Position numbers and translations under genes: made by a program. Of a stretch of DNA of 64,000 nt, positions 45,124-62,254 are shown piece by piece. The stretch spans positions 221,479 through 285,478 of the forward strand of contig NZ_CP025114.1 in the NCBI RefSeq assembly GCF_002831585.1, written 5' to 3'. Source of the stretch: Bradyrhizobium sp. SK17. Lineage in GTDB: Bacteria; Pseudomonadota; Alphaproteobacteria; Rhizobiales; Xanthobacteraceae. The notes beneath the pieces were generated by a model. That model searched no databases. It saw only the letters and a list, made by a program, of their open reading frames with translations, and was not told where the DNA came from. How positions within the stretch are numbered: position 1 is the stretch's first letter; each line of letters opens with the position of its first letter.

Positions 45124-45334
45124 CGTTCGTCCTGTTCTAGTGGCGGATTTATAGTTTCACTTCGTCCGGCCGCTTGCCATGCACCCGCTCGATCAGGTCA
45201 TTCCGTTTGACGTTTTCGATCAGGAGATTTCGCGTTTGAACACTTTGCTCGATACGTTTGGCATCGCGATCCCAGACGGCGCCAATATACTGATCAATAA
45301 GGCGCGAAGCGCACGGCACGGGAGGGGGCGCTAA

Positions 45335-47946
45335 TTGCTGGTTCATACTGAGGTTGTCGATGGACCCTTGGCATTGCGAATGCGACGCCTCAATGCCGCA
45401 CGCGACCAAGCCATCGGCCGTCAGATCCTGACACTCCCTCTTCTCGCGGCTCGGCTCGCGGGTGGGTTCATCGCACCGGCGACGCAGGAAATCTTGTATC
45501 CGGCCATAAGGCAGGCGCTCGAGGCGGGCGGATACGAGGATATCGACAAGGTTTGCCAACTGCCGGGGATGCCGGCGGCTGTGCTGTCCGCGCTTCGAGA
45601 CTGGTGGGACGTGGAGGCCCCAGGCTCGTTGCCCGACAACGCTCGCCTCAGAGACTTCACTTTACTCGAGCGCCGCGTGCGAGGCGCGCTGCCGGCCGGC
45701 ATGCTGTCCCCACCCGATCTGGTAAGAGCAGCCCTGGAGAGACTTCACTTTGCCCCGAAGTTAGTCGGCGCGATCACCATTCAAGGCGTTCCCGGCGTCA
45801 AACCCGTATGGCGTCCGCTCTTGCAGGCCCTCTGCGAGGCGGTGCCGGTCCGATGGATTGGATCACAACACAGCGGGCGCGCCTGGTTCGCCGGAGAGAT
45901 TGAGACATACCCCACAGGGGCGGCGTTGCTCCTCTCCGCTGATCTCTGTGCCGATCCACGAAGTGAAGTGAGAGAGGCGTTGCGCTGGGCGCGCGCGCTT
46001 GTGACGGCCGGAAAAGCCTCTCCCAATGAGATCGCCATCTCGGCGGCTTCGCCAACTGCGTGGGACGACGCGTTTCTGGTTCTTTCGCGCGAGGCGGGGC
46101 TTCCCGTGCACTTCACACACGGCATTCCGGCTCTAGCGACCCGCGAAGGACAGGCCTGTGCTGCACTCGCGGACATCCTGTTACGCGGGCTGTCGCAAGA
46201 CCGCGTGAGGCTCCTGTTTGCCCGTCTGCCGCGCAGTCCGGCCAAAGATAACCTGCCCGGCGACTGGACCAAAGGGTTGCGGCGGAGCGCCGCGCTGACG
46301 AGCCCGGGACTTTGGCGGCACGCTCTCGAGCAGGCGCGGGGAGAGCGGACAGACGGCGATCTCGCGGAACGCGCACTGTTGCCAATTCTGGATGACTTGG
46401 CTTGCGGCATCGCGGCTGCCGACGCGGTCGGGCGCCGTCTGTTGAGGGGACCTACAATGACTTTGTGGCGCGACGCGTTGCGTATGGCGCCCCCGCAGGC
46501 CATCGAGCTCTCGTTGCAGGCGCTGCGCATTGCGGACGGGCGTGAACCCGGAAACTCGATCGCGTGGGGACCTGCAGGTCACCTAGCGGCAGCCCCTCGC
46601 GCGCATGTACGCCTCATTGGGCTTGACGCAAACGCGTGGCCGAGACGGTCGAGCGAAAACCCGATCTTGCCGCAGCACCTGCTGGGACACATCAGACTTC
46701 CGTCTGCGGAAGCGGGCCAAAACGACCAGGCGATGCATGACATCATCATCGATCAATCTCAGAGTTATACGCTTTCACGCGCTTACAGGAGTGCGACGGG
46801 CTCTCTGCAAGCAGCCAGTACCTTGTGGCGGAGGGATAAGGAGCGCGTCGTCGGGCGTAGCGCAATCCCCGCGCATGCCTTCAGCGAGAGCGATCGTCTC
46901 TATGCCCGCCCGACCGATGCCGGGAAGGACCCGCAAGTGCGCGCAAGTCGGGCCTGCTGGCGGGCCTGGTGGGAAAGCGAGCAGCTCACCGCGCACGACG
47001 GGCGGATCCGTCCCGACCATCCGCTTATCGTCGACGCCCTCGCGGAAATTCAATCCACGACGTCTCTCCATCGGCTTCTGTGCGATCCGCTGGGGTTCGT
47101 CTGGGAATACGCGCTTCACTGGCGCCAGCCAAACCTCGACCCTCAGCCGCTCGCGCTCGACCATCGCGCGTTTGGCGAACTCGTCCACTCCCTCATCGGA
47201 GGCGTGCTGCGCGACGGTTTGCCTCGAAACGCCGACGAGATCGGGATCGCTCTGGACCGAGAGGCGGCGCGTCTCGCCGACGCGTGGCCGATCATTAGGG
47301 CCGTTCCACCCGGCCTTCTTTGGGGCCATACAATAGCGATGGCCCACGAGCGTGCGCTGCGAGGCCTCACAGAAGCTCTGGGCGAACAGCGCGGCGTGAC
47401 CTGGACAGAGCTTTCCTTCGGCGAGCCAAGCGACGCGCCTCACCCGTGGACCACACTCGCACCCGTCCCGATCGGGCAGACCGGCGTTTCCTTCCGGGAA
47501 GGATTGATCGACTCGACGAGGATGCGGGGCGTGGCGCTGCGATCATCACTGACTACAAGGTCGGGACAGCGCCTGAGCGAAAAAAACCGATCGCGTTCGA
47601 TCGCGGCGCTGAACTTCAGCGCGTCTTCTACGCCCTTGCGGTGCGGTCCCTGCTTCCAGAGCTCCGGAGCGTGAGCTCGCAGTTGACGTACCTCAAGCAC
47701 GACCCCGCGCGCACCCTAAGCCTGACAAACGAGGAGCTTGAGAAGGCCATTGAGCAGGCGGTTGGGTTCACCGACGCGGGCGCTCGCCTGCAACGCAGTG
47801 GCGAGATCGCGCCTGGATCGGCGCCGGCATTCTTCGACTCGCTCTCCGTTGCCCTGCCGGCGGACCTGGACTCGTATCGCCGTGTGAAGCGTCGTTCGTT
47901 TGCTCAGGCAAACGGTGCGCTCGACAAGCTTTGGAGCAGCCAGTGA
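45335..47946 (+). CDS. AddB-like helicase-nuclease subunit with a frameshift
   Basis: The frame 45335-47674 encodes a protein resembling AddB: UvrD-like repeats without an N-terminal Walker A, a PD-(D/E)XK nuclease at the C-terminus, and segments such as RLIGLDANAWPRRSSENPIL. The nuclease active site (GRIDRLDEDAG, then AIITDYKVG) is in a different frame, entered near 47496, and continues to 47946. One extra G in CGGGAAGG would join them. An SD (GGAGGGGG) precedes the TTG start at 45335. It overlaps the AddA-like gene, so the two form an operon. Whether the frameshift is biological or a base-calling error is unresolved. Confidence 0.75.
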
Positions 47947-50900
47947 GCGTGCCCGACTTCGACGCCCGCCGGCGGGCACTTACTGATTTCAAATCCAACA
48001 TGCTGGTTGAGGCCGCGGCTGGCACCGGCAAGACGTCGTTGATGGCCGCCCGCGTCGCAATGATGATCGCGACGGGAATTGATCCTGCAAAGATCGCCGC
48101 GATCACCTTCACCGAGCCGGCGGCGAGTGAGCTCGAGGCGCGTATACGCTGGACCATCGACGAGCTCCGCAATGGCCGGCTGCCTCCCGCGCTCTCGGGG
48201 GTTCTCTCGCTGCCCTTAGGCGAAGCGATGCGTGCGCAGCTCGCTTCGGCCACCCCACGCATCGGGGAGATAACGGCAACGACGATTCACGGCTTTTGCC
48301 AAGCCATCCTTCGTTCGCACGGGATCGACGCGGCGCTTGACCCTGGTTCACGCGTGGTCGACGAGACCATTGCCGATGCCCTCTTTGATGAAGTGCTTGC
48401 GGCTTGGCTCAAGGAGATGCTGGCGCGTGGTGACGAGCAGGACGGTCCGGTTGCTGTTCTTGCGAAGGACGATCCACTGGGCGTGGTTGAGCGGATCCGT
48501 GAGCTTGCCGACCTTCGGCGAAAGCATCGCAGCGCGACCGTGCCAGCCCCGGATTTCTCAACACGGCCGGACCGCACTTTCGCGGACGCCGTTACGGCGT
48601 TTTCTCGCTGGCACGCCGCGGGACCCGGAGAAACGTGGACAGCTGATCTCATCGCAGATCTCGACCGCCTTGTTGCGTTCTTCGACGGCGATCACGCGAA
48701 GGCCGAATTCTCCGTGCTCTGGCGACTGACTCAGCCACCGCGCATAAGCATGATGCGACAGAAAAGCATCGACCTGCTGCCCTACGACAGGACGCGCTTC
48801 TGGAGACAGGCGCTCGGAGAAGCGGACGGGCGCCGTCGCGGACAGGAAGCAACCGAACACTTCGAAACGGTACAGACGGCTTACCGGACACTGATCGGCG
48901 CCATTGCGCAAAGCCTCGTACATGAACTAGCTGCGCACCTAAGCGGAGTGATCGACGCCTACGATCGGCGCAAGCGCGAGGCGGCCGTCCTCGACTTTGA
49001 TGACTTGCTGCGACAGGCGCGAGCGCTGATCTGCGAAAATGCTGATATTCGCGCCTGGCTCGCTGGCCGGTACGCGTATCTGCTGGTCGATGAATTCCAG
49101 GACACCGACCCCGTGCAGGCCGAAATCGTATTTTGTATAGCCGCGCTGTCGCAGCCCGAGACTTGGAGCAGCGCCGTTTTGCGGCCCGGAGCGCTGTTCC
49201 TGGTCGGTGATCCCAAACAGGCGATCTATCGCTTTCGCGGCGCTGACGTTGAGTCCTACGCGCTCGCCAAGTCCGTCATTGCAAAGGCCAAGAATGGCTG
49301 CCTGCTAGCGGTCACCGCGAATTTCAGGTCCCGCCCGGAGATTATCGCGCACGTCAATCGCGTGTTCCAAGATGTTCTCGAGAAGACAGGACAGCCGGGA
49401 TTCGTGCCGCTCGCTCCGACCCTTGAACTGCCGCCACTACCTTTCGCCGCGGCCGCGAAACTGACAATCGACGTTCCGCGGGACGCGAACGCCGAGGAAC
49501 AGCGCGAAGCGGAAGCGTCCGCCGTCGCAGAGCTGTGCGCGCGCTTGATTGGTGCCCTGCCAATCTGCGGGCCGGATGGGATAGAGCGATATTTGCGCGC
49601 AGGCGACATTGCGTTGCTCGCGCCTACACACACGGACCTCTGGCGCTATGAACGCGCCCTCGAAGGACGGCGCATCGCGGTGGCGTCCCAGGCAGGTCAC
49701 GCGCTGTTCCGGCGCCAGGAGCTTCAGGACATTCTCGTCCTGATCCGCGCGATCGCGGATCCGCTGGACACGTTGGCTTTCGGCGCTCTCATGCGAGGCC
49801 CGGTTGTCGGGCTGCGTGACGAAGACCTTCTCGATATCACGGCGGCGCTTTCTCCCGACCAGGACGGTCGTCGGCGCTTCCAGCTACGGACGCCGTCGGA
49901 CGAGGTAAGTCATCCCCTGGCAAGAGACATCCTGGTAAAGCTTCAGGCACTTCACCGCCTTGCCGCGGAACTCACGCCGATGCAGCTCGTCGCCTTCGCG
50001 ATAGAGCGCTTGAACTTGCGAGTGATTATGGCGGCACGGCACGGCCAGCGGAACGCGCGCGCGCTCGCGAACCTTGACGCCATCGTCGAACTCGCCAGGC
50101 CCTACAATGTTGCTGGCCTGCGCGCCCTCGCGCTCGATCTCCAACGCGGATGGCAGAGCAAGCGCCGGCATCCAGAAGGAAGGGTCGATGCGTCCGAGGA
50201 TTCGGTGGAGATCGTCACGATGCACAGCGCCAAGGGTCTGGAATGGCCCGTCGTCATCACGGTGAATTCTTCAACCCGCTTCAAGCCTCAGGACCAGTTT
50301 GTCTATCGGCAATCCGACGATACGATCCACTGGGTCGTCGGGGGCATCGAGCCGCCCGCACTTGCGGCAGCCCGCGAAGAGGAGGAGTTTCGCGAGGCAC
50401 GGCAGCGGGAAAGGCTTTGGTATGTCGCGACGACGCGCGCCTGCGATCTGCTGGTGATCCCCGAACTGCCGGGCGCACCCTCACGCTCATGGTCGAGAGT
50501 GATGAATCTCGGGCAAAAGGAACTTCCCGAGATCCAACCTGACATGTTGCCTGAGCCCGTCCCGAGCGCTGTGCAGCCCGTCGCCAATGATCAGTCTGAG
50601 ACCATATTTGCGGCCGAAGGCGAGAGACTGGCCGGTGCTTCGCCGTCGATCATATGGGATCGTCCGAGCGAACGCGACGCGGATCGCAGCGCCGAGATTG
50701 TGGACGCGTTCGTTGTCGACGACGCGTCTCATGCGCTGCCGGAAATAGATGGTGCCGGGGCGCTGCGCGGTACGATCTTGCACAAGCTTATGGAAGAGCT
50801 CCTGACTGGCGAGCTTGGCTCGTTCCGAGACCATGCGGCAGCACGCGCGACCGAGCTACTCGCGCAGCTACAATCGAACGTGCACGACGAGAGGGATGAA

Positions 50901-51230
50901 GGGGGCCCCGACGCGCTCGAAATGGCGGAGACGGCCCTGCGCACTTTGGCTCTTCCTGAACTCGCACCCTTTCTCGGACAACTAATTCCTGAAATCCCGC
51001 TCTGGGCGGCAAACCCGCCGCACTACCTCGTCGGACGCGCAGACGCGGCGGTCGTCGAGGGAGAGCGCATTGCGCTCGTCATCGACTGGAAGTCGGACGT
51101 GAACCCCACGGCGGCGGCACACAGTGCGCATGCGGCGCAGCTGCGCGACTATATCCGCGTCACAGGCGCCGAGCGGGGCGCTATCGTCTACATGTCCGCA
51201 GCGCAAGTGTCCTGGATTGAACCTACCTAG
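47943..51230 (+). CDS. AddA-like UvrD helicase with nuclease domain
   Basis: A protein of about 1,095 residues. The SF1A helicase motifs are AAAGTGKT (Walker A, about residues 25-32), LLVDEFQDTDP (Walker B), GDPKQAIYRFRGAD and VTMHSAKGLEWP. A C-terminal PD-(D/E)XK nuclease has LVGRADAAV then LVIDWKSD. This is the AddA architecture, which resects double-strand breaks or degrades linear DNA together with AddB. The start is GTG at 47943 (overlapping the previous stop) or TTG at 47931. Location on a plasmid beside ietAS and Gabija suggests a defence role, which is inference. Confidence 0.88.
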   Translation: MSVPDFDARRRALTDFKSNMLVEAAAGTGKTSLMAARVAMMIATGIDPAKIAAITFTEPAASELEARIRWTIDELRNGRLPPALSGVLSLPLGEAMRAQLASATPRIGEITATTIHGFCQAILRSHGIDAALDPGSRVVDETIADALFDEVLAAWLKEMLARGDEQDGPVAVLAKDDPLGVVERIRELADLRRKHRSATVPAPDFSTRPDRTFADAVTAFSRWHAAGPGETWTADLIADLDRLVAFFDGDHAKAEFSVLWRLTQPPRISMMRQKSIDLLPYDRTRFWRQALGEADGRRRGQEATEHFETVQTAYRTLIGAIAQSLVHELAAHLSGVIDAYDRRKREAAVLDFDDLLRQARALICENADIRAWLAGRYAYLLVDEFQDTDPVQAEIVFCIAALSQPETWSSAVLRPGALFLVGDPKQAIYRFRGADVESYALAKSVIAKAKNGCLLAVTANFRSRPEIIAHVNRVFQDVLEKTGQPGFVPLAPTLELPPLPFAAAAKLTIDVPRDANAEEQREAEASAVAELCARLIGALPICGPDGIERYLRAGDIALLAPTHTDLWRYERALEGRRIAVASQAGHALFRRQELQDILVLIRAIADPLDTLAFGALMRGPVVGLRDEDLLDITAALSPDQDGRRRFQLRTPSDEVSHPLARDILVKLQALHRLAAELTPMQLVAFAIERLNLRVIMAARHGQRNARALANLDAIVELARPYNVAGLRALALDLQRGWQSKRRHPEGRVDASEDSVEIVTMHSAKGLEWPVVITVNSSTRFKPQDQFVYRQSDDTIHWVVGGIEPPALAAAREEEEFREARQRERLWYVATTRACDLLVIPELPGAPSRSWSRVMNLGQKELPEIQPDMLPEPVPSAVQPVANDQSETIFAAEGERLAGASPSIIWDRPSERDADRSAEIVDAFVVDDASHALPEIDGAGALRGTILHKLMEELLTGELGSFRDHAAARATELLAQLQSNVHDERDEGGPDALEMAETALRTLALPELAPFLGQLIPEIPLWAANPPHYLVGRADAAVVEGERIALVIDWKSDVNPTAAAHSAHAAQLRDYIRVTGAERGAIVYMSAAQVSWIEPT

Positions 51231-52530
51231 CGCGCTCACCAGGGCGGATTGAGAATCGGCGAGGGCGAGCAAACCAAAACCCCGCGCGACCCACGGGTCA
51301 TCGCGACGTAGAGATTGCGCGCGTTGAGAGCGCCGGCATTGAGAACAACCGAGATGTCGGCTTCGAGACCTTTCAGGAGCAGGGTGCTTCCGACGGAACG
51401 CCTGGCGAGGGGCCGGCCGATGAGCCGAGATTGTTCTCGGATCGTCACCGTCGCCTCTCGGAACGAGGGTCCGCCGGGAGAGGCTGCAAGTTGCAGAGCC
51501 CGCTGGGCTGCTGCCAGCACGGCGGGACGGTAGCACCGAACCCCACCCGCGCGGTTGATGGCGGTGAGAAGATCCGAGACCTCTGCAAACGACCGCGACG
51601 CTTCAAACCTCACGGCCGTTTCCTCGATACCGGAAAGGGCCCGTCCGAGTTTACCAGCATGAGCTGCCGCAACCGACCGCACGAGGTCGTCTGCGGAAAA
51701 GGCGCTCATCAAGTTCTCTGCAAAATCGGCCACGACGGAGAGCGCTTCGGGTTTCGCGAGGTCGAGCGTACCGCCAAAATCCGTAAGATCGCGCAGGTCC
51801 ACAGCCTCGACCGTCACGGCTCCCGCGACTTGGCGGGCGAAACGACGCTGTCCGCGAGGGTCCGTGCTGTCACCGATGATCAAAACCTTCGTCTCGCCCG
51901 GCGCGTCCACCGCGGCTGCCGCTTGCCGCAGCGCATCGTCCTGGCGACCATCGAGTTGAATCCACCGGACACTGCCAGGTGCTGTCCGAAGGTCGATCGG
52001 CCTGCCTGCCGCTAGGTCAGGTCGTATCGACAGCAACCACTTACCTAAATCGTGCGCCCCTGCGTTGTTCCATCTCCACGGAGTCACAAGTTCTCCGACA
52101 ATCGGGAAAAACGACACCACGTCCGCCTGCCAATCTGCCAACGGGTCGGCGCCGAATCCAAAGATAGACTGAAACGGATCTCCGACGATGGCGGTGGGTA
52201 GACTTTGAGCCAACCAGGTTACAAGGGCGTGCTGGCGGATCGAACAGTCCTGGTACTCATCGACAAATAAGCATCGGAAATTGGCGGCGAGAACGTCATG
52301 AAGGTGCCCGGCGGCAACCAGGCGCGCTGCCGTGTCACGGATGGCTTCGTAGTTCGGCCGGGCGCCAGTTACGATTCGCGGATCGTGTCCCGCGCGTTGC
52401 GGAAACGTAGAAATCAGCCTGATCGCGAAGCCGTCGAGTGTCGTGGCGCGGTAAACACTCGGCTTCACGCCCGCCCTTTCCAGGCGGCCTCGGAGCGCGG
52501 CGACCCCGGCGTTGGTGTGTGTCAGCACTA

Positions 52531-53577
52531 GAGCGTTTCATTGCTTAATTGAATCGGAGGGGATTCCGGTTTTGGGCGGTTTGTGATTCAAGATGCTGAC
52601 TGGATTGGAGGCCAGCATCGCATGACCCGACCTCTTTCCCTTGATCTTCGCGAACGTGTGGTGGCGTCGGTTCTGGCGGGCGAGAGCTGCCGGTCTGTGG
52701 CGGAACGGTTTGGCGTTGCGGTCTCATCGGTTGTGAAGTGGTCACAGCGGCAGCGGGCGACCGGCTCGGTTGTGCCTGGCAAGATGGGCGGTCACCGCAA
52801 GCCTGTGCTTGATCCGCACCGCGCCTTCATCGTCGAGCGGATCACTCAGACGCCTCACCTGACGCTGCATGGTCTGAAGGCGGAACTGGCAGCCCGTGGG
52901 GTCAAGGTCTCACACAACGCGGTCTGGCTGTTCCTGCGCCGGGAAGGGCTGCGGTTCAAAAAAAACACTGTTCGCTCTCGAACAGGCTCGCGCCGACGTC
53001 TCTCGTAGGCGTCAGCGTTGGCGATCCTGGCAGGCCGGGCTCGATCCGGGCCGCCTCGTCTTCATCGATGAGACCTGGATCAAGACCAACATGGCCCCTT
53101 TGCGAGGCTGGGGCCCCAAAGGGGCACGCCTGCGCGGCTTCGCCCCGCACGGTCACTGGCGTACCCTCACATTCCTCGGCGCGCTCCGCCATGACCAACT
53201 CACGGCACCCTGCGTCTTCGACGGCCCGATCAACGGCGAATGCTTCTGCGCTTATGTGAAGCACCTTCTCCTGCCAACCCTGCGCGAAGGCGACATCGTC
53301 ATTCTCGACAATCTCGGAAGCCACAAGTCGAAAGCTGTCAGGCAGATGATCCAGGCTGCTGGCGCCAGGCTCTGGTACCTGCCGCCATACTCGCCCGACC
53401 TCAACCCGATCGAGCAGGCCTTCTCCAAGATCAAACACTGGATGCGGCAAGCTCAGAAGCGCACCATCGAGGACACCTGGCGCCACATCGGTCAGCTCGT
53501 CCAGGACATCCAGCCTCGCGAATGCGCCAACTACTTCGCTAACGCGGGTTATGCTTCAGTCAAAATGTGAAACGCTC
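52531..53577 (+). mobile_element. IS630-family element, copy 1 (in gajB)
   Basis: A 1,047-bp element with ends GAGCGTTTCA and its complement TGAAACGCTC, flanked by the TA target repeat (52529-52530 and 53578-53579) that IS630 elements always use. It is identical to copy 2 at 57905-58950 by my reading except for one G. The transposase reading frame is the intact version here. Confidence 0.93.
52622..53570 (+). CDS. IS630-family transposase (two overlapping frames)
   Basis: The first frame (ATG at 52622, stop at 53008) carries the helix-turn-helix (MTRPLSLDLRERVVASVLAG, then SVAERFGVAVSSVVKW). The second (open from about 52896 to 53570) carries the DDE core: VFIDETWIKTNM (Asp), ILDNLGSHKS (Asp) and SPDLNPIEQAFSKIKHW (Glu). 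They overlap at a run of eight A residues (about 52959-52966), where slippage or frameshifting would produce the fused transposase, as is usual in this IS group. Confidence 0.92.
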
Positions 53578-53689
53578 TAAGATGGGTTTCGAGCCGTCGT
53601 GCCGCGTGAGAGCATCGGTGATGAGCTGGGTCTTGCCGCAGCCCGCAGGCGCTATCACCAGCCCGCGGTTTATCGAGCGCAGGTCGATT

Positions 53690-55408
53690 TCAACGGCTGC
53701 CATCTTCGACCCAGTCCCGAAGGCCGTCGATGACGCTGGTGAGGCTGGCATCAGCCTCGCCGTAGGCGGGGCCGACGATCGTCCGGCCCGCCGTTTCCAT
53801 CGTGCTAATGGTCTTCAACCATCCAAAGCGGGCTGCCGCGTTTCCGAGGAGGGTGCGACTGTCGGGGGCCAGACCGTCTATCAACGCCTCGGTCTCCAGA
53901 TCGCCGAGCGTGTTCGCGCCATTGGAGATTGTCCTGATATGCGCTTCGATCAAGGCGCGATCCTTCGTCTCGATAGCGAGCTCGAGCAGTTCGCTCACAG
54001 GACCGTCCGGCAGTGCGGCGAACAATTCCTGTTCGAGCGCTCGCCCGCCGCCCCATGCGAACACCTTGCCACCGCCCGCAATAAAAGCCGCTTCTGCCGC
54101 TGTTGGAGCGGGCTTGTCACTGTCTCTCAGGATGGCTATCCAGTAGCCGAGGGATTGCAAAGCGGTCGCGCGGCTGAAGGTCTCATCGCCGTTGCCATTG
54201 ACCAAAGTCGCGCCACATGCCGACAGCGACGTCTCGCCGCTCGCGGTGAAGTGCTGGTCCAGACCACGCATTAGACCGATTTCGCTGCCGCCCTCGCACA
54301 CCACAATGGACGACGCGAGTAAGGCGTGGGCGTGGGCGCGGATGGTGCCCTGTACGTCCCCGGCGTCGCTCGCGCGTCTGACTGTATGCTGCCCGCCGTT
54401 CCTGCGGACGATGTGAAGCTGGTGTGCGTTCAACTCGGCGACGGCGATCGGCGAATGGCTCGTCGCGAAAACCTGCAGCGGCGGTACTTCTTCCTTTGCG
54501 CCCAAAGCACCAAGCAGGCGAATGATGCGATGCGGCTCGAGCCCGTATTCGAGTTCGTCGATGAGAAACGTGGTGACCTTCTCGGCCGCCTTCCGCTGCA
54601 ACGCCGCGATCAGCAGGCGCGACGAACCGAGGCCAAGGGCGCGGAGCGGCACCCCTTCCTCGTCATGGAGTGAGATGGTCCCGCCCGTGAAGGTGACCGA
54701 GCCGGCATCGATGAGCGCCTGGACGGCGGCGCCCACGGGCACCCCCATGTCTCCGGCAGCCGCCTTGACCAGCTTGAGCGGCTCCGCGAGTTCCTTGAGA
54801 TCTTTTTGGTCGAAGGCGTCGCGCATCTCACGCGCCGCCCGCGTCAGCTCCTTTGATGCGTCGGTCTTGCCATCGGTGAGTTTGGTCAGCACGGATCCGC
54901 GTCGCCAAGTCAGATGGGTGTCGCCGGTGACGCCAAGCCTAGCGGGCGCGACGCGCGTGCGATCAGCCCAGTTGAGGTTGCGGGTCCGACCTGCAGCCTG
55001 CGCGCGGGGCGAGACGAGCGTCCACTCCGGCTCGAGGTCGTCCTGGACGGTGAGCTGCAGAGTCAGCGTGGTTTCGAGGCCGGAGCCGGGCTCCGGTTCC
55101 ACCACCCCGGTAGCTGAATTGAAGCCCACGAGGAAGTCGCCGTAGGAGTCGATGTTCTTCAGAGGATCGTCCAAGGCGCCGAGAGTCAGTGCAATGCGGA
55201 TGGGGTGACCGAAATCGAGAGCGTGGAAGTCGGCGTCGGTGAAGGAGAGCGACCGCCGTGCGCCGAGGCAAAGGTCGATGGCATCAAGGATGGTGGACTT
55301 GCCGCTGTCCCCGGGCCCAATCAGGCAATTTACCCCTGGACTAGGCAGCCAGCGAAGGCTCTTGACCGCCCGAAAGTTTTCGATCTCAAGCACACGGACC
55401 AACGCCAT
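53690..55408 (-). CDS. gajA: GajA, OLD-family ATPase-nuclease of the Gabija system
   Basis: A 572-residue protein: N-terminal ABC-type ATPase with Walker A GPGDSGKS (31-38), signature-like GLGSSR (259-264), Walker B FLIDELE (281-287) and switch His in TSH (316-318). A Toprim nuclease domain follows, with Glu372 (VVCEGGSE) and the DSD motif (429-431, ILRDSDKP). Length is close to the 578 residues of the founding GajA. The adjacent UvrD-like gene makes this a Gabija antiphage pair, in which GajA nicks DNA when nucleotide levels fall. The frame opens at 55534, but the ATG at 55408 starts at the ATPase domain. Confidence 0.87.
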   Translation of the reverse strand: MALVRVLEIENFRAVKSLRWLPSPGVNCLIGPGDSGKSTILDAIDLCLGARRSLSFTDADFHALDFGHPIRIALTLGALDDPLKNIDSYGDFLVGFNSATGVVEPEPGSGLETTLTLQLTVQDDLEPEWTLVSPRAQAAGRTRNLNWADRTRVAPARLGVTGDTHLTWRRGSVLTKLTDGKTDASKELTRAAREMRDAFDQKDLKELAEPLKLVKAAAGDMGVPVGAAVQALIDAGSVTFTGGTISLHDEEGVPLRALGLGSSRLLIAALQRKAAEKVTTFLIDELEYGLEPHRIIRLLGALGAKEEVPPLQVFATSHSPIAVAELNAHQLHIVRRNGGQHTVRRASDAGDVQGTIRAHAHALLASSIVVCEGGSEIGLMRGLDQHFTASGETSLSACGATLVNGNGDETFSRATALQSLGYWIAILRDSDKPAPTAAEAAFIAGGGKVFAWGGGRALEQELFAALPDGPVSELLELAIETKDRALIEAHIRTISNGANTLGDLETEALIDGLAPDSRTLLGNAAARFGWLKTISTMETAGRTIVGPAYGEADASLTSVIDGLRDWVEDGSR

Positions 55409-55521
55409 CCTGCTTCCCCCGCTCGTTCGCCACTGGGAGTGTCCACCGAGTGGGTGGAAATCAGCGACTCCCAGTCGAAACCCTCGTATCAGCGCGGGCG
55501 ACATGGCTGAACTTGACTTAC

Positions 55522-55535
55522 AATGCAAATGCATT
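55522..55535. promoter_or_regulatory. Candidate operator of prlF-yhaV
   Basis: AATGCA and TGCATT form an inverted repeat with a 2-base spacer, 35-48 bases before the prlF start. A TTGACT lies at 55513-55518. AbrB-type antitoxins repress their own operon, so a site here is expected. Confidence 0.45.
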
Positions 55536-55569
55536 ACATGGGATGCTGTAACGATGCAAGGAGCGGGTT

Positions 55570-55911
55570 ATGGCCAAGACCGCTGAAATCCTCGAAATCC
55601 CCGCGACCATCACTGAGCGCGGCCAGACGACCGTGCCCGCCGCCATTCGCAGAATGCTGGCTCTCGGCAAACGCGATCAGGTCGTGTTTCGCGGGCTCGC
55701 GGACGGCACCGTCGTGATCGCGAAGAAGCAATCGAGCGCCAACGACGGCGATCCGGTGATCGGCAGGTTCCTCGCCTTCCTGGCGCACGACATGGCGAAC
55801 GAGCCGGCGCGAATTCGGCCAGTGCCGAAGTCGCTGGTCGCGCGCGGCAAGGATCTCGCCAAGGGCGTCAAAGTCGATCTCGACGCGGCGCTGCCGGAAG
55901 ATGATGCGTGA
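55570..55911 (+). CDS. prlF: PrlF-type antitoxin (AbrB/SpoVT fold)
   Basis: A 113-residue antitoxin whose N-terminal swapped-hairpin AbrB domain reads EIPATITERGQTTVPAAIRR then VFRGLADGTVVI. The C-terminal half (IGRFLAFLAHDMANEPARI) is typical of PrlF and wraps the toxin. It is coupled to yhaV by a 4-base overlap, and its own promoter region carries a short palindrome. Confidence 0.92.
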   Translation: MAKTAEILEIPATITERGQTTVPAAIRRMLALGKRDQVVFRGLADGTVVIAKKQSSANDGDPVIGRFLAFLAHDMANEPARIRPVPKSLVARGKDLAKGVKVDLDAALPEDDA

Positions 55912-56411
55912 GCGACGATACCTTCGAGGTCAACGGTTGGGCGATCTATGCGCATCCGCTTTTTCTCGACCAGCTAGAGGCGATGATCGCGGCGGTCGAG
56001 AAGGCGCGCAAGAAAGACCCAACGGGATATAAGAAGAAACGCGCCGCAAAGCTCCTCGCGGCCGTCTTGAAAGTGGCGTTCGAAGATATCCCAGGTGACC
56101 CGACCCGCGACGTCTATCGCCAGGGCGGCACGCTCGGCGACGACTACAAGCACTGGTTCCGCGCCAAATTCCTGCAGCAGTTCCGGCTGTTCTTTCGCTA
56201 CCAACAATCAGGAGACGCTAAAATCATCGTGCTCGCTTGGGTCAACGATGACTCGACGCTGCGCGCCTACGAGAGCGGCAGCGACGCCTATGCCGTGTTT
56301 CGGAACATGCTGAATCGCGAGAATCCGCCAGATACGTGGAAGGAGCTTCTCGCCGCTGCATCAGACGCCGGCGCGAGACGTCGGATCGCGCGTGCGACGC
56401 GCGAGCGGTAA
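55908..56411 (+). CDS. yhaV: YhaV-type toxin ribonuclease
   Basis: A 167-residue toxin. Family hallmarks are FEVNGWAIYAHPLFLDQLEA at the start, DVYRQGGTLGDDYKHWFRAK, FLQQFRLFFRY and LAWVNDDSTLRAYESGSDAY. YhaV is a ribosome-associated RNase neutralised by PrlF. It starts with GTG inside the prlF stop. Both genes look complete. Confidence 0.93.
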   Translation: MSDDTFEVNGWAIYAHPLFLDQLEAMIAAVEKARKKDPTGYKKKRAAKLLAAVLKVAFEDIPGDPTRDVYRQGGTLGDDYKHWFRAKFLQQFRLFFRYQQSGDAKIIVLAWVNDDSTLRAYESGSDAYAVFRNMLNRENPPDTWKELLAAASDAGARRRIARATRER

Positions 56412-56430
56412 TCCAAGAAAGCGATACGCG

Positions 56431-57333
56431 ATGATCGTACCAACAAAGCTCGCTCGGTTTGACGCGCGTGTTCGCGCCTTTCTCGCGCAGCATTTCAAAA
56501 GCCGGGCGCCCTCGCTCGCTGAACTCACGGGGCTGTGGGAAACCTACGCGCGCCTTGGCCTTCCCAACGAGGATTTTGTCGCGGAGTTCACCAACGGCAA
56601 GCCGGCAAGCCTGGCTCAACGCACATGGGAGCTTCTGCTTGCGCAGCACCTCCACGACCAAGGTCACGAACTGACCTGCGTTGGCGATGGCCCGGATTTG
56701 CGCCTTGAACATGGCGGCGTGAGGATATGGATCGAGGCCGTCTGCCCTGAGCCGAAAAACCTTCCCGCCGATTGGCTCGAAGAGCCGAAGCCAGGCGAGG
56801 CGAAGGTCGGTACGTTTCCTCACGAACAAATCTTGTTGCGCTGGACGACTGCCTTTGACGCGAAGGTCAGCAAGCTCCAAACGTATCTGAAAAAGGGAAT
56901 CGTGCTGCCAACGGATGCCTACATCATTGCGATCAACGGCTGCCAGCTGGGATGGACGCCCGGTGCGCGTGGAATCACGCAGATGCCCTTTGGCGTCGAA
57001 AGTGTTTTTCCCGTGGGTCCGTTGCAGTACTTGATCAACCGCGAGACCAGAAGAATCGAAGGCGCCTCCCTTTCATTGCGATTTTCCATTGTAAATCACA
57101 ACAACACTGCAATTCCGACGACGCCGTTCCTCGATCCGGCTTACGCCGGTGTGTCAGCTGTATTTGGTTGCGCCACCGATCGGCGCCATGGAAAGCCTCT
57201 GACCATGCACGTAGTCCATAACCCGCTGGCGACGGTGCCGGTATCGCACGGACTGTTTGGTGTCGATGAAGATGAATGGTTCGCGGTGCCGGTGCCAGAC
57301 GCTCCAGGTGAATTTGATCTAACCCACGCCTAG
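56431..57333 (+). CDS. Hypothetical protein with a nuclease-like core
   Basis: A 300-residue protein of unknown family. Residues about 60-105 contain TWELLLAQHLHDQGHELTCV, then GDGPDLRLEHGGVRIWIEAV, which resembles a PD-(D/E)XK nuclease core (Glu in helix 1, GPD, then E-x-V). The Lys of the classic motif is not obvious. The rest shows no helix-turn-helix, signal or membrane segment. It follows yhaV after 19 bases and sits in a defence island, which favours a DNA-related role. Function not assigned. ATG at 56431 chosen over the first frame opening at 56392, which overlaps yhaV. Confidence 0.7.
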   Translation: MIVPTKLARFDARVRAFLAQHFKSRAPSLAELTGLWETYARLGLPNEDFVAEFTNGKPASLAQRTWELLLAQHLHDQGHELTCVGDGPDLRLEHGGVRIWIEAVCPEPKNLPADWLEEPKPGEAKVGTFPHEQILLRWTTAFDAKVSKLQTYLKKGIVLPTDAYIIAINGCQLGWTPGARGITQMPFGVESVFPVGPLQYLINRETRRIEGASLSLRFSIVNHNNTAIPTTPFLDPAYAGVSAVFGCATDRRHGKPLTMHVVHNPLATVPVSHGLFGVDEDEWFAVPVPDAPGEFDLTHA

Positions 57334-57528
57334 CGGGGTCACCCCGCGACGGTCTGAACGCCCACCTTTTCCTATGGTTGAACAGGCGAGAGGCCATACG
57401 TCGATAGCGCGCGGCGAAACCGTGAAAAGATGATATGCAGCTTGCCGGAGGTAAGGCAGGAGAGACGATCGCAACAGACCAGCCGGTCGGGCTGACGACA
57501 GTGTGATCTGGCAGGGAGTCGCAGCGAC

Positions 57529-57717
57529 ATGTCTACGATCCAGCTTTCAGCAACGCCACGCGGTAATGGTTACCAGGCGACCGTGACATTCCCAGACGGG
57601 CTCTCGGTTAGCTCGGAAGAAACCTATCCGACGATCACCGAGGCCATCACCGCCGCGGCGATGAAGCTACTCGACATGCCCGAGCGTCTGGCAACATTGG
57701 ACCAAACAGGCGCGTGA
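57529..57717 (+). CDS. Small hypothetical protein
   Basis: A 62-residue protein (YQATVTFPDGLSVSSEETYP, then TITEAITAAAMKLLDMPERL) with a beta-hairpin and helix pattern, of a type I have seen in rhizobial genomes without a known function. Bases 57334-57528 before it hold nothing recognisable. Confidence 0.55.
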   Translation: MSTIQLSATPRGNGYQATVTFPDGLSVSSEETYPTITEAITAAAMKLLDMPERLATLDQTGA

Positions 57718-57904
57718 TCAGCGCCTGTTGGCGAGTTCGACCAGCACGTCGCCGTGGCATGCGAGCGGCGCGCAGAAATGAGATCGCGCCCGCGCAGTTG
57801 CTCGAGCGCATTCATCAGCGCAGGTTGCGCAGCGATCCAAGCGCGATATTTTGCGATGACCTCGGCGCGCGTGCCGTCGCGGCCGATGACGAATGGATTG
57901 CTTA
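57718..57904 (-). pseudogene. DUF4326 protein, C-terminal fragment cut by IS630
   Basis: The reverse strand encodes NPFVIGRDGTRAEVIAKYRA then LRGRDLISAPLACHGDVLVE and LANRR, the C-terminal 60 residues of DUF4326. The N-terminal part should lie beyond the IS630 copy, but bases after 58951 do not continue it, so the insertion was followed by recombination or deletion. Confidence 0.8.
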
Positions 57905-58950
57905 GAGCGTTTCATTGCTTAATTGAATCGGAGGGGATTCCGGTTTTGGGCGGTTTGTGATTCAAGATGCTGACTGGATTGGAGGCCAGCATCGCATGAC
58001 CCGACCTCTTTCCCTTGATCTTCGCGAACGTGTGGTGGCGTCGGTTCTGGCGGGCGAGAGCTGCCGGTCTGTGGCGGAACGGTTTGGCGTTGCGGTCTCA
58101 TCGGTTGTGAAGTGGTCACAGCGGCAGCGGGCGACCGGCTCGGTTGTGCCTGGCAAGATGGGCGGTCACCGCAAGCCTGTGCTTGATCCGCACCGCGCCT
58201 TCATCGTCGAGCGGATCACTCAGACGCCTCACCTGACGCTGCATGGTCTGAAGGCGGAACTGGCAGCCCGTGGGGTCAAGGTCTCACACAACGCGGTCTG
58301 GCTGTTCCTGCGCCGGGAAGGGCTGCGGTTCAAAAAAAACACTGTTCGCTCTCGAACAGGCTCGCGCCGACGTCTCTCGTAGGCGTCAGCGTTGGCGATC
58401 CTGGCAGGCCGGGCTCGATCCGGGCCGCCTCGTCTTCATCGATGAGACCTGGATCAAGACCAACATGGCCCCTTTGCGAGGCTGGGGCCCCAAAGGGCAC
58501 GCCTGCGCGGCTTCGCCCCGCACGGTCACTGGCGTACCCTCACATTCCTCGGCGCGCTCCGCCATGACCAACTCACGGCACCCTGCGTCTTCGACGGCCC
58601 GATCAACGGCGAATGCTTCTGCGCTTATGTGAAGCACCTTCTCCTGCCAACCCTGCGCGAAGGCGACATCGTCATTCTCGACAATCTCGGAAGCCACAAG
58701 TCGAAAGCTGTCAGGCAGATGATCCAGGCTGCTGGCGCCAGGCTCTGGTACCTGCCGCCATACTCGCCCGACCTCAACCCGATCGAGCAGGCCTTCTCCA
58801 AGATCAAACACTGGATGCGGCAAGCTCAGAAGCGCACCATCGAGGACACCTGGCGCCACATCGGTCAGCTCGTCCAGGACATCCAGCCTCGCGAATGCGC
58901 CAACTACTTCGCTAACGCGGGTTATGCTTCAGTCAAAATGTGAAACGCTC
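57905..58950 (+). mobile_element. IS630-family element, copy 2
   Basis: A 1,046-bp copy of the element at 52531-53577 with the same ends and TA flanks (57903-57904 and 58951-58952). It lacks one G in the run at about 58494-58497 (CCCCAAAGGGCAC instead of CCCCAAAGGGGCAC). Confidence 0.93.
57996..58943 (+). pseudogene. IS630-family transposase, frameshifted copy
   Basis: The helix-turn-helix frame is intact, but the catalytic frame is broken by the missing G near 58496: it runs on to 58632 in a wrong frame, and the rest of the core (ILDNLGSHKS, NPIEQAFSKIKHW) is in the frame ending at 58943. This copy can be moved only by the transposase of copy 1. Confidence 0.88.
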
Positions 58951-59229
58951 TAGGTCAGATGTCAAGTGTCCTTCGTTGATGAAACTTTTGGAATCTTTTT
59001 CCTTTCCGACGGATGACACCTTGCGGTGTCATTTGGACCGATTCACTCCGCGCGGGCTGAGCCGCATGGCCAGTGGCTTGATCGCCACCATGCGAGCAAG
59101 CGAGCGACTGCGCTCTGATGCAATCAAGCGGGAAATTGGAGCGCGCCGTGGATATCGGCGGATCAATTGGGAGGAATGGGCAACAGCTTATGGGTGTCGA
59201 GACTTCGATCGCCCGCGACGTTGTCGCGC
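58951..59229. other. Region without a recognisable gene
   Basis: About 280 bases between the IS630 copy and merR. Short ORFs are present on both strands but none is convincing. It likely contains the junction left by rearrangement. Confidence 0.4.
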
Positions 59230-59781
59230 TCACGCTGGACGCGCGACTTTCGTCACTTCGGCCCTGCGCCGAGCTCGGGCGGGACGCGCGCCGCCGGCGA
59301 CAGACCTCATCTCGAAAAGGGCATCGATGATCGGGCACTCCGGAACCTGATCGCCCTTGCATTGCGCCGCCATGTCCGACATCGCCCGCTCCAACCGCTG
59401 CAGGTCGACGATCTTCCGACGGATATCCCTGAGATGTTCGACGGTCAGCGCGTTGACCTCCGCACAGGTGAAGGCGTGCCCGTCAACCAGGCGGAGCAGG
59501 TTACGCAATTCGTCGAGGCTGAAGCCAAGTTCTCGACCCCGACGAACGAAATGCAGCCGCCTGACATGCTCGACCCCGTAGATGCGGTAGCCGGCGGCGC
59601 TGCGAGCCGGCGCCGGCATGATGCCGATCTTCTCGTAGTAGCGGATTGTCTCGATGTTCACTTCGCTGCGCTCTGACAATGCCCCGATCGAAAAGTCTTC
59701 GGTTGCTTCATTTTTGGCCTCACAAATCCGTGAGAAGTTCTCGCTTGACCCTGTAGTCCCTACAGGCCTTAGGGTCACCAT
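59230..59781 (-). CDS. merR: MerR mercury-responsive regulator
   Basis: MerR represses and, with Hg(II), activates the divergent mer operon. The N-terminal winged helix is ALSERSEVNIETIRYYEKIG then RSAAGYRIYGVEHVRRLHF. The three mercury-binding cysteines are visible in AFTCAEVNAL and in AAQCKGDQVPECPII. The only conventional in-frame starts (ATG 59781, GTG 59778) lie inside the promoter itself and add about 25 extra N-terminal residues, so the real start may be a non-standard codon or the upstream part may be altered. Confidence 0.88.
   Translation of the reverse strand: MVTLRPVGTTGSSENFSRICEAKNEATEDFSIGALSERSEVNIETIRYYEKIGIMPAPARSAAGYRIYGVEHVRRLHFVRRGRELGFSLDELRNLLRLVDGHAFTCAEVNALTVEHLRDIRRKIVDLQRLERAMSDMAAQCKGDQVPECPIIDALFEMRSVAGGARPARARRRAEVTKVARPA
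59745..59775 (+). promoter_or_regulatory. mer operator-promoter
   Basis: TTGACC (59745-59750) and TAGGGT (59770-59775) are separated by 19 bases, the over-long spacer typical of MerR-activated promoters. The spacer holds the MerR dyad CTGTAG-TCC-CTACAG (59751-59765). It drives merT and the genes after it. Confidence 0.9.
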
Positions 59782-59805
59782 AGATCGATTTCGGGAGCGT
59801 GTTCA

Positions 59806-60254
59806 ATGACGGTGCGAGACGAGGCAACAGCGCTGCCAAACGAGGTCATGACGACGACGCGGAATCAATTGGGCGCTGCGGCGCTGCAGGCGAATGACCG
59901 AACCAAGGGCGGCGCCTCGCGGCTCCTCGCGGCGGGCGGCATCCTGCAGCGCTCGGCGCCGCATCGTGCTGCGTCATACCATTCGCCCTTTTCACGCTGG
60001 GCGTCAGCGGCGCCTGGATCGGCAATCTGACTGCGCTGGAGCCGTATCAACCGCTCTTCGCCCTCGTCGCGCTGGGCTTCATCGGTTACGGCGCTTATCG
60101 GGTCTACGCCAAACCGAAAGCTGCATGCGTCCCGGGGTCTTATTGCGCCGATCCGAAGTCCGACAGATTGGCCAAGATCGGTCTTTGGGCCGCGACCGGG
60201 CTCGTCATTGTCGCGCTCGGCTTCCCCTACCTCATCCGCGCCATCGCATTCTGA
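59806..60254 (+). pseudogene. merT: merT mercury transporter with a frameshift
   Basis: MerT is an inner-membrane protein that brings Hg(II) into the cell. The first part (LLAAGGIL) and the rest (ALGAASCCVIPFALFTLGVS, then GAWIGNLTALEPYQPLFALV) are in different frames; one missing G near 59951-59953 (CTGCAG for CTGGCAG) explains it. The Cys-Cys pair of helix 1 and the later ACVPGSYC cysteines are all present after correction. Confidence 0.8.
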
Positions 60255-60269
60255 ACCCAGGAGATCGCC

Positions 60270-60569
60270 ATGTTTCATCGCCTTGCATCCGCCGTCCTGA
60301 CCATCGGCTTGTTCGCTGCGCCCTCGCTCGCCGTCGCGGCCGAATCGACGGTCACCCTCGCCGTCCATCACGCGGGGTGCGTCCTTTGTGGTCCCATCGT
60401 CAAAAGCACTCTGGAACACGTGACCGGCGTGAAATCGGTTCAGGTAAGCCAGGCCGACGGCATGGATGACGTCACGGCGACGGTGCTGTTCGACAATGCT
60501 CTCACGTCCCCGAACGCCATGATCAAGGCGACAACCGATCATGGCTATCCCGCCGATCTGAAGTCATGA
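60270..60569 (+). CDS. merP: MerP periplasmic mercury-binding protein
   Basis: A 99-residue protein with a signal peptide (about residues 1-24, ending AVAA) and a heavy-metal-associated domain with Cys37 and Cys40 (HAGCVLCGPIVK). It hands Hg(II) to MerT. The motif is GCVLC rather than the classic GMTCxxC, a variant seen in some alphaproteobacteria. Its stop overlaps the ATG of the next gene. Confidence 0.9.
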   Translation: MFHRLASAVLTIGLFAAPSLAVAAESTVTLAVHHAGCVLCGPIVKSTLEHVTGVKSVQVSQADGMDDVTATVLFDNALTSPNAMIKATTDHGYPADLKS

Positions 60570-60828
60570 ACGCGGACGGGCAAGGCGTCAGGCCATTTGC
60601 TCTTGGAATTATTGGGCCGTTTTGGCGGTAACCTGCTGTGGGGCGCCCATCCTGATCGCAAGTCTCGCGACCGCCGGCATTTCGGCGTCGCTTGCCGCGA
60701 CGGGCTATGTCGGAATCGCGATTGTGCTGACAGGTTTGGCAGTCGCCGCCTTTTGGCTCGTTCGCCGCCGCTCAAGCGCTGATTGTTGCGCGAGTACATT
60801 GGACAGGAAGAGTTCAAATCATGAGTGA
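60566..60828 (+). pseudogene. MerF-like mercury transporter with a frameshift
   Basis: The start (ATG at 60566, RPFALGIIG) and the rest (TCCGAPILIASLATAGISAS, then a second hydrophobic helix and RRRSSADCC) are in different frames. One missing G near 60623 (TTTTGGCGG for TTTTGGGCGG) would join them. Two membrane helices with a Cys pair in the first and one after the second match MerF. It overlaps merA by 8 bases. Confidence 0.7.
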
Positions 60829-62254
60829 CTGCTGCGCGCCCGCGAAAAAAGGACAAAGCTACGACCTCGTGGTCGTCGGCGCCGGCTCGGCCGGCTTTTC
60901 CGCCGCGATCACCGCCGCCGAGCAGGGTGCACAGGTCGCGCTCATCGGATACGGCACGATCGGCGGCACCTGCGTCAATATCGGCTGCGTGCCTTCGAAA
61001 GCGTTGATCCGGGCTACGGAGGCGGTGCACCACGCCAATGTCGCGCAAACTCGGTTCGCAGGCATCGAAAGTGGCGCCCGCGTGGTCGATTGGGCCGCAC
61101 AGATCGCCCAGAAGGACGCTTTGGTCGCTGGACTGCGTCAGGCGAAATACGCCGACCTCCTGCCCGAATACAACAACGTAGCCTACCGAGAAGGTCAGGC
61201 CCGGCTCGTCGCTGGCGGCGTCGACGTGGATGGTCAGCGGCTCACTTCGGAGCGCATCATCGTTGCAACTGGTGCGCGCCCCGCGCTGCCGCTGATTCCC
61301 GGAATCGCCGACGTCTCGCCGCTCGACAGCACGGCGGCGCTCGCCATGTCGCAACTACCGCGTTCGTTGATCGTGCTTGGCGGCGGCTATGTGGGGGCTG
61401 AACTCGCCCAAACCTTCGCGCGCGCTGGCGTCGGGTCACGCTGGTCTTTCGCAGTCGGCTCCTGCCGGAGGCCGAGCCCGAGATCGGATCGGCTCTCGCG
61501 GGCTACCCTCGCCGATGAAGGGATCACAGTCATCAGCGGAGCGGCCTATGATTCCGTCCGCAGGACCGATGACGGCGGTGTGGCTCTCGCCATTATCCGC
61601 AGCGGCCGTCCGGACATATTGACAGCCGAGCGGATTCTCGTGGCGACCGGGCGCACGCCGAATACTGAAACTCTCGGCCTCGCCGAGGCCGGCGTCACGC
61701 AGGCGTCGTCCGGCTCGATCGTCATCGACGACCGTATGCGCACGTCGAAAGCGGGCGTCTATGCGGTCGGCGACGTGACAGGCAAAGACCAGTTCGTCTA
61801 CATGGCGGCCTATGGCGCAAAGCTCGCGGCCAAGAACGCGCTGAACGGCAACAGCCTGCGTTATGACAACTCGGCGATGCCGGCAGTCGTGTTCACCGAT
61901 CCACAGGTGGCGAGCGTCGGTTTGACCGAGGCGCAAGCCCGCGCTGGCGGGCACGCCGTGCGAACCTCGGTGCTCTCACTCGACAATGTGCCCCGCGCGC
62001 TTGCAGCCCGCGACACCCGAGGACTGATCAAGCTCGTGGCGGACGGCGCAACCCGAAAACTGCTCGGCGCGCACATTCTGGCGCCGGAGGGCGCCGACAG
62101 CATCCAGACGGCGGCGCTGGCGATCCGCTGCGGTCTCACGATTGATGACCTCTCAGAGGCGATCTTCCCCTACCTCACGACCGTCGAGGGGCTGAAACTC
62201 GCGGCGCAGACGTTCGACAAGGATGTCAAGAAGCTGTCCTGCTGTGCGGGCTAA
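60821..62254 (+). CDS. merA: Mercuric reductase (short form)
   Basis: MerA reduces Hg(II) to volatile Hg(0) with NADPH. The 477-residue flavoprotein has the FAD motif GAGSAGFSAA, the redox cysteines Cys51 and Cys56 (GGTCVNIGCVPSK) and the C-terminal Cys474-Cys475 pair (KKLSCCAG). It lacks the N-terminal metal-binding domain. Residues about 204-231 (61430-61512) do not match the family: the expected VTLVFRSRLLPEAEPEIGSA is encoded in another frame there, so two compensating indels flank this stretch. Confidence 0.9.
   Translation: MSDCCAPAKKGQSYDLVVVGAGSAGFSAAITAAEQGAQVALIGYGTIGGTCVNIGCVPSKALIRATEAVHHANVAQTRFAGIESGARVVDWAAQIAQKDALVAGLRQAKYADLLPEYNNVAYREGQARLVAGGVDVDGQRLTSERIIVATGARPALPLIPGIADVSPLDSTAALAMSQLPRSLIVLGGGYVGAELAQTFARAGVGSRWSFAVGSCRRPSPRSDRLSRATLADEGITVISGAAYDSVRRTDDGGVALAIIRSGRPDILTAERILVATGRTPNTETLGLAEAGVTQASSGSIVIDDRMRTSKAGVYAVGDVTGKDQFVYMAAYGAKLAAKNALNGNSLRYDNSAMPAVVFTDPQVASVGLTEAQARAGGHAVRTSVLSLDNVPRALAARDTRGLIKLVADGATRKLLGAHILAPEGADSIQTAALAIRCGLTIDDLSEAIFPYLTTVEGLKLAAQTFDKDVKKLSCCAG

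What the first reader, a model, noticed from the sequence alone, without database searches (positions are those of the whole stretch)
51236..55408. Gabija antiphage system with gajB knocked out by an IS630 insertion
GajA is complete (ATPase and Toprim motifs, 572 residues), but gajB is split at 52531-53577 between Walker A and the rest of the helicase. The element is flanked by a TA repeat and its removal restores a 473-residue GajB. This suggests recent inactivation, and it raises the question of whether GajA alone is kept for a reason.
Basis: partly seen in the sequence, partly recalled or inferred. Interest (0 to 1): 0.75.

Follow-up and report, generated by a model that had tools for sequence, protein, structure and literature searches.

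The report
Interrupted Gabija beside an AddAB-like pair
A plasmid-borne bacterial anti-phage system (Gabija) has had its helicase gene split by a jumping element, and close relatives of it in root-nodule bacteria sit next to a pair of DNA-end-processing enzyme genes, a pairing for which we found no published description.

Summary
Window 53690-55408(-) encodes a complete GajA. gajB is split into a 42-codon and a 430-codon piece by an IS630 copy (52531-53577) flanked by TA. The pieces match adjoining parts of one GajB profile; relatives are uninterrupted there.

That GajA alone is kept for a reason is not supported: of 52 related loci none has gajA without any trace of gajB, a second assembly carries the same insertion, and published work needs both genes for defence.

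gajB lies tail to tail with an AddA-like helicase-nuclease and an AddB-like nuclease (47931-51230, 45335-47946). In 20 of 20 assessable loci with GajA at least 66% identical (window included), addA is adjacent; in 13 intact copies the four genes co-diverge (Mantel r 0.97-0.99) while flanks vary. A second, distant Gabija lineage pairs with a related AddBA clade; other AddBA pairs border Shango, Zac, CBASS and SIR2-HerA genes. RecBCD is reported to shield self DNA from Gabija (preprint PMC12407980), so AddBA may be a carried-along partner; that step is inference.

addB here also shows a frameshift, real or artefact. The contig has a 22.7-kb untrimmed end overlap; this locus reads identically in both ends.

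The parts
53690..55408 (-). gajA, 572 aa: ABC-type ATPase plus Toprim (OLD-type) nuclease; Walker A (K37), Walker B (D284 E285), Toprim E372, D429, D431 present
   Evidence: PADLOC GajA 734.6 bits; residues invariant in 18 aligned GajA and checked in the window
53578..53703 (-). gajB 5' piece, 42 codons, holds the Walker A motif (PAGCGKT); overlaps the gajA end by 14 bp as in relatives
   Evidence: PADLOC GajB profile 3-40; 14-bp overlap in 13 of 13 intact relatives
51236..52530 (-). gajB 3' piece, 430 codons, UvrD-like remainder of the helicase
   Evidence: PADLOC GajB profile 42-469, 514.6 bits; Pfam UvrD-helicase 40.4 bits
52531..53577 (+). IS630-family element (two overlapping transposase frames 52583-53008 and 52896-53570), inserted in gajB, transposase opposite to gajB
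   Evidence: NF033545 156.9 bits; inverted ends; 2 sites in the genome, each listed twice because of the contig overlap
52529..52530 (.). TA target copy, one side
   Evidence: sequence
53578..53579 (.). TA target copy, other side
   Evidence: sequence
47931..51230 (+). addA-like gene: UvrD/RecB-type helicase with C-terminal PD-(D/E)XK nuclease, tail to tail with gajB
   Evidence: Pfam UvrD-helicase 172.8 bits, PDDEXK_1 24.3 bits; family profile's best solved match B. subtilis AddA 3u44, E 3e-60; motifs present
45335..47946 (+). addB-like gene: helicase-like fold plus PD-(D/E)XK nuclease; in this assembly split by a single-base frameshift near 47.49 kb, just before the nuclease core
   Evidence: two ORFs, same in both contig ends; model of relative L054 matches B. 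subtilis AddB best; an intact 870-aa protein over 99% identical to both pieces is listed (P0004)
57905..58950 (+). second copy of the same IS630, same orientation, own TA flanks, 1 base shorter in this contig end
55570..56411 (+). prlF-yhaV toxin-antitoxin pair, divergent from gajA; also present in relatives L054, L057, L066
   Evidence: Pfam PrlF 138.4 and YhaV 188.8 bits; relatives

Best explanation
This is a knocked-out copy of a Gabija anti-phage system of the short-GajB kind, on a plasmid with repC genes in a member of the Bradyrhizobium/Nitrobacter group (host inferred from relatives, not named by any tool). An IS630 copy inserted at a TA between codons 42 and 43 of gajB. That parts the Walker A motif from the rest of the helicase, so no working GajB should be made; at most a 430-aa piece could start at the GTG beside the element (inference). 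GajA is left intact as a bystander, not as a kept stand-alone effector. The locus belongs to a conserved four-gene cassette, addB-addA tail to tail with gajB-gajA. In intact relatives GajAB would act on DNA ends that lack RecBCD-type processing (reported for Pseudomonas Gabija), and AddBA would be a second, carried-along end-processing helicase-nuclease. Shown: gene content, insertion, conservation, co-inheritance. Inferred: loss of function here and any working link between AddBA and Gabija.
For: Profiles and motifs. IS ends, TA, transposase. Uninterrupted relatives. Insertion in two assemblies. No other full match to this GajB model in the genome: of 8 matches to PDLC04173, 6 are this locus read twice (3' piece, 5' piece, addA) and 2 are weak chromosomal ones at 41.4 and 28.2 bits. 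Both genes needed in vivo: preprint PMC12407980 section 5 (read whole); PMC10681800 passages. Cassette: AddA in 20 of 20 assessable close loci, window and near-copy L064 included; Mantel r 0.97-0.99 over 13 loci, convergent gap 5-13 bp in 13 of 13; flank homology in 16 of 136 and 31 of 136 pairs of 17 loci.
Against: GajA alone cuts target DNA in vitro (PMC10781630 and PMC10681800 passages), so some residual activity is possible. gajA shows no decay, but the event may be too young to tell. No expression data. The second assembly may be the same plasmid lineage, hence not an independent event, and shows only one IS edge in gajB.
Confidence: 0.88

Rival explanations
1. AddBA is a general, stand-alone defence-island nuclease that degrades linear invading DNA and merely travels with many systems; its tie to Gabija is by location only.
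For: AddBA relatives border Shango, Zac/HmaA, type II CBASS, SIR2-HerA, DRT1a and AbiE genes; no Gabija was seen in the stretches read around AddBA in L091, L093, L095; 23 of 23 more distant GajAB loci (GajA at most 56% identical) have no AddBA in the stretch read, some stretches being cut by contig ends.
Against: In the window clade AddA stays beside GajBA in 20 of 20 assessable loci while flanks change, and two distant Gabija lineages pair with neighbouring AddA clades (joint support 98/98), though L091, without Gabija, branches first in the long-Gabija clade.
Confidence: 0.5
2. AddBA is a dedicated partner of these Gabija systems: it processes self DNA ends so that Gabija does not attack them, or backs up host AddAB when a phage blocks it.
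For: RecBCD protects DNA from Gabija and a strongly expressed Gabija is not viable in recB- cells (preprint PMC12407980 passages). Lesions in the short-Gabija clade are lopsided: 13 loci with Gaj and AddBA intact, 0 with Gaj intact and AddBA broken, 2 with Gaj broken or lost and AddBA intact (L140, L008), 4 with both broken (window, L009, L071, L072); Fisher p 0.004, or 0.044 without the doubtful window and L071 (counts taken by hand; test). Gaj lost with a stub left and AddBA kept in both lineages (L008; L143).
Against: Related loci are not independent (L007, L063 and L070 are near-copies) and general decay also gives double lesions. L053, L055, L056 and L059 could not be scored. The host has canonical chromosomal AddA and AddB. 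AddBA also joins systems not known to sense ends.
Confidence: 0.25
3. GajA without GajB is retained for a function of its own, such as sequence-specific nicking.
For: gajA is open with the catalytic positions checked; GajA alone cuts DNA in vitro.
Against: 0 of 52 loci are gajA with no gajB trace; the insertion is too young to show selection; both genes needed in vivo.
Confidence: 0.05
4. The IS630 works as a reversible switch for gajB, with an uninterrupted subpopulation.
For: The element has both frames and both ends; cut-and-paste movement is usual for its family (recalled).
Against: No uninterrupted close copy seen: among the 120 listed of 3663 GajB relatives, the best shown match to the 3' piece is 89.6% identical; excision of such elements usually leaves a footprint (recalled); both assemblies carry the insertion.
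Confidence: 0.04

Closest known systems
Gabija (GajA OLD-type nuclease + GajB UvrD-like helicase)
   Same: Both genes, order, motifs, PADLOC profiles PDLC04168/04173
   Different: gajB interrupted here; an AddBA pair lies tail to tail in this clade, which the papers seen do not list as part of the system
Host AddAB / RecBCD / AdnAB end-processing complexes
   Same: AddA-like helicase with nuclease domain (best solved match AddA 3u44); AddB-like fold (best match AddB, 4ceh chain B)
   Different: 246.0 (window) and 250.2 (L007) bits against the cut-off of 860.75 for alphaproteobacterial AddA, and no TIGR02786 match for the L007 AddB; plasmid-borne beside defence genes, while the host keeps a canonical pair
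IS630 family (Tc1/mariner type)
   Same: TA target, inverted ends, transposase model match
   Different: nothing notable; two overlapping frames with an A run suggest frameshifting (inference)

Membership tests
Gabija | GajA with ABC ATPase and complete Toprim site | tested here: met
   734.6 bits to PDLC04168; E372, D429, D431; profile matches solved GajA chains at E 9e-10 over the region 276-443
Gabija | GajB: UvrD-like helicase with Walker A and DExQD box in one reading frame | tested here: not met
   both motifs present but on two pieces split by IS630; gajB is one full frame in 44 of 52 related loci
Gabija | gajA-gajB operon order | tested here: met
   14-bp overlap as in 13 of 13 intact relatives
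Gabija | Phage defence needing both proteins in a 4:4 complex | not testable with these tools
   literature only
IS630 | TA target duplication, terminal inverted repeats, transposase | tested here: met
Canonical alphaproteobacterial AddA (TIGR02784) | Score above 860.75 bits | tested here: not met
   246.0 bits for the window protein; host chromosomal AddA scores 1393.2
AddAB-type complex | AddA: UvrD-type helicase plus RecB-type nuclease | tested here: met
   Pfam, motifs, 3u44 at E 3e-60
AddAB-type complex | AddB: helicase-like fold plus PD-(D/E)XK nuclease | tested here: met
AddAB-type complex | Heterodimer, end resection, Chi response | not testable with these tools
   none

The most novel reading that the evidence does not exclude
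The rhizobial plasmid cassette is an extended Gabija: the nuclease-helicase travels with its own AddAB-like complex, which marks or processes self DNA ends and so lets a mobile Gabija work in hosts whose own repair complex does not fit it. The wider plasmid AddBA family would be a shared self-licensing helper for several DNA-end-related defence systems, and its loss would be tolerated only where the paired defence is dead.
Probability: 0.2. Interest if true: 0.78.

Novelty: new variant of a known kind. Interest (0 to 1): 0.5.

Why it matters
The insertion itself is ordinary. The four-gene cassette gives an independent, genomic hint of a link between Gabija and RecBCD-type end processing, which a 2025 preprint proposed from Pseudomonas genetics. 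If AddBA is a dedicated partner, the open question of how a mobile Gabija spares its new host becomes testable with a ready natural gene set.

Tried and rejected
Rejected: GajA being an OLD protein of another class (Old 52.5 against 734.6 bits). Rejected: a real duplication of the locus; the repeat runs to both contig ends. Rejected as a lesion: L055 gajB, whose break holds N letters. First taken as broken and then corrected: L142 long gajA, open over 595 codons. No Rfam match in 44000-60000. No tRNA in the window. The AddB profile had no sequence match in solved structures, hence the fold search. ZacABC: the listing held no paper on them that I could recognise.

What the counts leave out. The 52 loci are a sample: from the GajA hits I left out L050, L051, L073, L074 (partial gajA), L137 and L138 (not examined further), L031-L034, L052, L064, L106, L126-L128, L145, L146 (same place as, or near-copy of, a counted locus), and the plasmid records that I did not fetch (317 records hit, 40 listed). 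In the AddBA tally L053, L056 and L059 are cut by contig ends (L059 has GajAB full and only the addA tail before the end). The AddA plasmid list shows 60 of 63 records, the long-GajA list 25 of 159, the AddB protein list 120 of 525.

Papers: PMC12407980 passages, outline and section 5; passages only of PMC12904381, PMC10781630, PMC12948488, PMC10681800; all others seen as search listings only.
Full report
1. Observation. The window's minus strand holds a complete gajA (53690-55408, 572 codons) that scores 734.6 bits over its whole length against PADLOC GajA PDLC04168, with Old at 52.5. gajB is in two pieces: 53703-53578 (42 codons, with the Walker A motif) and 52530-51236 (430 codons). Searched apart, they match profile positions 3-40 and 42-469 of the same GajB model. 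Between them lies an IS630 element, 52531-53577, with imperfect 25-nt inverted ends, TA on both sides and a transposase frame at 156.9 bits to NF033545. Relatives are uninterrupted at that place.

2. The contig. The window is the end of contig C2 (285,478 bp). C2's first 22.7 kb align with window 41255-64000 at 99.81% and reach both contig ends, which I read as a circular molecule whose overlap was not trimmed (about 262.7 kb). Of the 44 differing columns none lies in window 44903-58494, so the locus is read the same way twice, but the ends of the window carry many small discrepancies. The IS therefore has two sites, not four: in gajB, and at 57905-58950 in the same orientation.

3. Age and spread of the insertion. 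The two IS copies are near-identical. A contig of another assembly (L053, JAFKKQ010000309.1, a MAG) has identical gajA DNA and the same IS edge in gajB, and ends inside the IS. So the knock-out is carried by a lineage or plasmid seen more than once. No full-length GajB close to this one turned up: among the 120 listed of 3663 relatives the best match shown to the 3' piece is 89.6% identical.

4. Is GajA kept alone? In 52 loci with GajA relatives, 41 have both genes full, 8 have full gajA and partial gajB (window, L053, L009, L026, L035, L046, L055, L056), 3 have broken gajA and full gajB (L071, L072, L140), and none lacks gajB. L053 and L056 end with the contig and L055 has N letters. gajB is thus hit about as often as gajA. 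Published work finds both proteins needed in vivo (preprint PMC12407980 section 5; PMC10681800 passages), while GajA alone cuts DNA in vitro (PMC10781630 passage). I see no sign of a stand-alone GajA.

5. The wider unit. Tail to tail with gajB lies an AddA-like gene (47931-51230), preceded by an AddB-like gene (45335-47946). In close relatives (GajA at least 66% identical) whose contig reaches far enough, AddA is there in 20 of 20 and AddB in 19 of 20 (missing in L072), window and near-copy L064 included. In 23 of 23 more distant loci (GajA at most 56% identical) neither is there in the stretch read. For 13 intact cassettes the distance matrices of all four proteins agree (Mantel r 0.969-0.994, 0 of 2000 permutations as high), gajA and gajB overlap by 14 bp in 13 of 13, and the gajB and addA stops are 5-13 bp apart. 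The DNA outside varies: upstream flanks are homologous in 16 of 136 pairs and flanks beyond addB in 31 of 136 (17 loci). This looks like a discrete mobile cassette; four Rhizobium plasmids that carry it, whole or damaged, are typed as conjugative.

7. Other partners. In plasmids AddA relatives occur in 63 records; among the 60 listed, at least 13 also have GajA within about 5 kb (7 of the short kind, some damaged, and 6 of a long kind; accessions and positions compared between the capped lists). The long kind (PDLC00070/00117) sits divergent and upstream of addB in L090, L092, L141 and L142 and about 3 kb downstream in L144, whose AddA lies elsewhere in the tree. In the AddA tree the short-Gabija clade (100/100) and the clade with the long-Gabija rows (100/100, which also holds L091 without Gabija as its first branch) are sisters (98/98); the tree is rooted at a midpoint beside a very long chromosomal branch. 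A further AddA clade borders Zac, HmaA-like, Shango, SIR2-HerA and CBASS genes. Hence AddBA is a defence-island family at large, with tight Gabija pairings in some clades. Sampled frequency at E 1e-100, own genome included each time: 13 of 397 genomes of the order, 8 of 385 of the class, 3 of 398 of the phylum.

8. How it may work. Hong and colleagues (preprint) report that RecBCD action protects DNA from Gabija, and that a strongly expressed Gabija is not viable without recB (PMC12407980 passages). They name AddAB as an analogous system but describe no linked genes in the passages I read. A Gabija that carries an AddAB-like pair fits that picture: AddBA could license self ends, back up a blocked host AddAB, or degrade DNA opened by GajA. 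Lesions in the short-Gabija clade are lopsided in the expected way (13 both intact, 0 Gaj intact with AddBA broken, 2 Gaj broken or lost with AddBA intact, 4 both broken, taken by hand; Fisher 0.004, or 0.044 when the doubtful window and L071 are left out), and Gaj has been lost with AddBA kept in L008 and L143. This is weak evidence: loci are related, some are near-copies, four could not be scored, and decay hits neighbours.

9. addB in the window. Both contig ends show the same frameshift just before the nuclease core, but an intact 870-aa protein 99.7% and 99.3% identical to the two pieces is listed (P0004, 25 member sequences). Its source column is '-', which the tool uses for proteins of the window itself, so it may stem from a near record of the same organism. 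The frameshift may be a recent mutation or a consensus error.

10. Novelty. Searches of the held open library listed no paper that, from title and abstract start or the passages read, describes a Gabija-AddAB gene pairing; one search listed 20 of 820, 12 of 40 and 15 of 99, and subscription papers are not covered. The insertion is ordinary; the cassette is a new variant of a known kind.

Noticed in passing
window 41255-64000: Terminal 22.7-kb untrimmed overlap of the contig, with 44 differing columns against the other end, mostly single-base indels at 41.3-44.9 and 58.5-63.9 kb; ORFs there should be read with care.
   Followed up: yes
window 24726-25964 and 32870-34102: Two RepC replication genes on one plasmid, with a relaxase-domain gene at 20203-22545: possibly a fused plasmid.
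   Followed up: no
window 42784-45123: S8 peptidase gene next to addB; in L007 and L139 an ATP-binding protein plus S8 peptidase pair sits beside gajA instead.
   Followed up: no
window 55570-56411: PrlF-YhaV toxin-antitoxin pair divergent from gajA in the window, L054, L057 and L066, perhaps an addiction module for the cassette.
   Followed up: partly
window 56437-57333: 298-aa protein with weak PADLOC matches to PD-T7-1 and PD-T7-5 (30.0 and 27.4 bits), between yhaV and the second IS630.
   Followed up: no
window 52531-58950: Two IS630 copies in the same orientation bracket gajA, prlF-yhaV and the 298-aa gene; similarity to L054 stops at the left edge of the second copy, as if it marks a rearrangement.
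   Followed up: partly
window 59230-62254: MerR-type regulator (133.5 bits, below the MerR cut-off of 150.85) and a pyridine nucleotide-disulphide oxidoreductase, perhaps a metal-resistance stretch.
   Followed up: no
L109-L112, L116, L117, L123, L125: Alphaproteobacterial loci with addB-addA followed by zacA-zacB-zacC-like genes (a helicase gene between in L110 and L111), most with a WYL regulator and an HmaA-like helicase on the other side; families called by similarity to PADLOC-tested examples.
   Followed up: partly
L008:17920-18189 and L143:4458-4718: Gabija remnants beside addBA: a gajB tail and a long-gajA head, two separate losses.
   Followed up: yes
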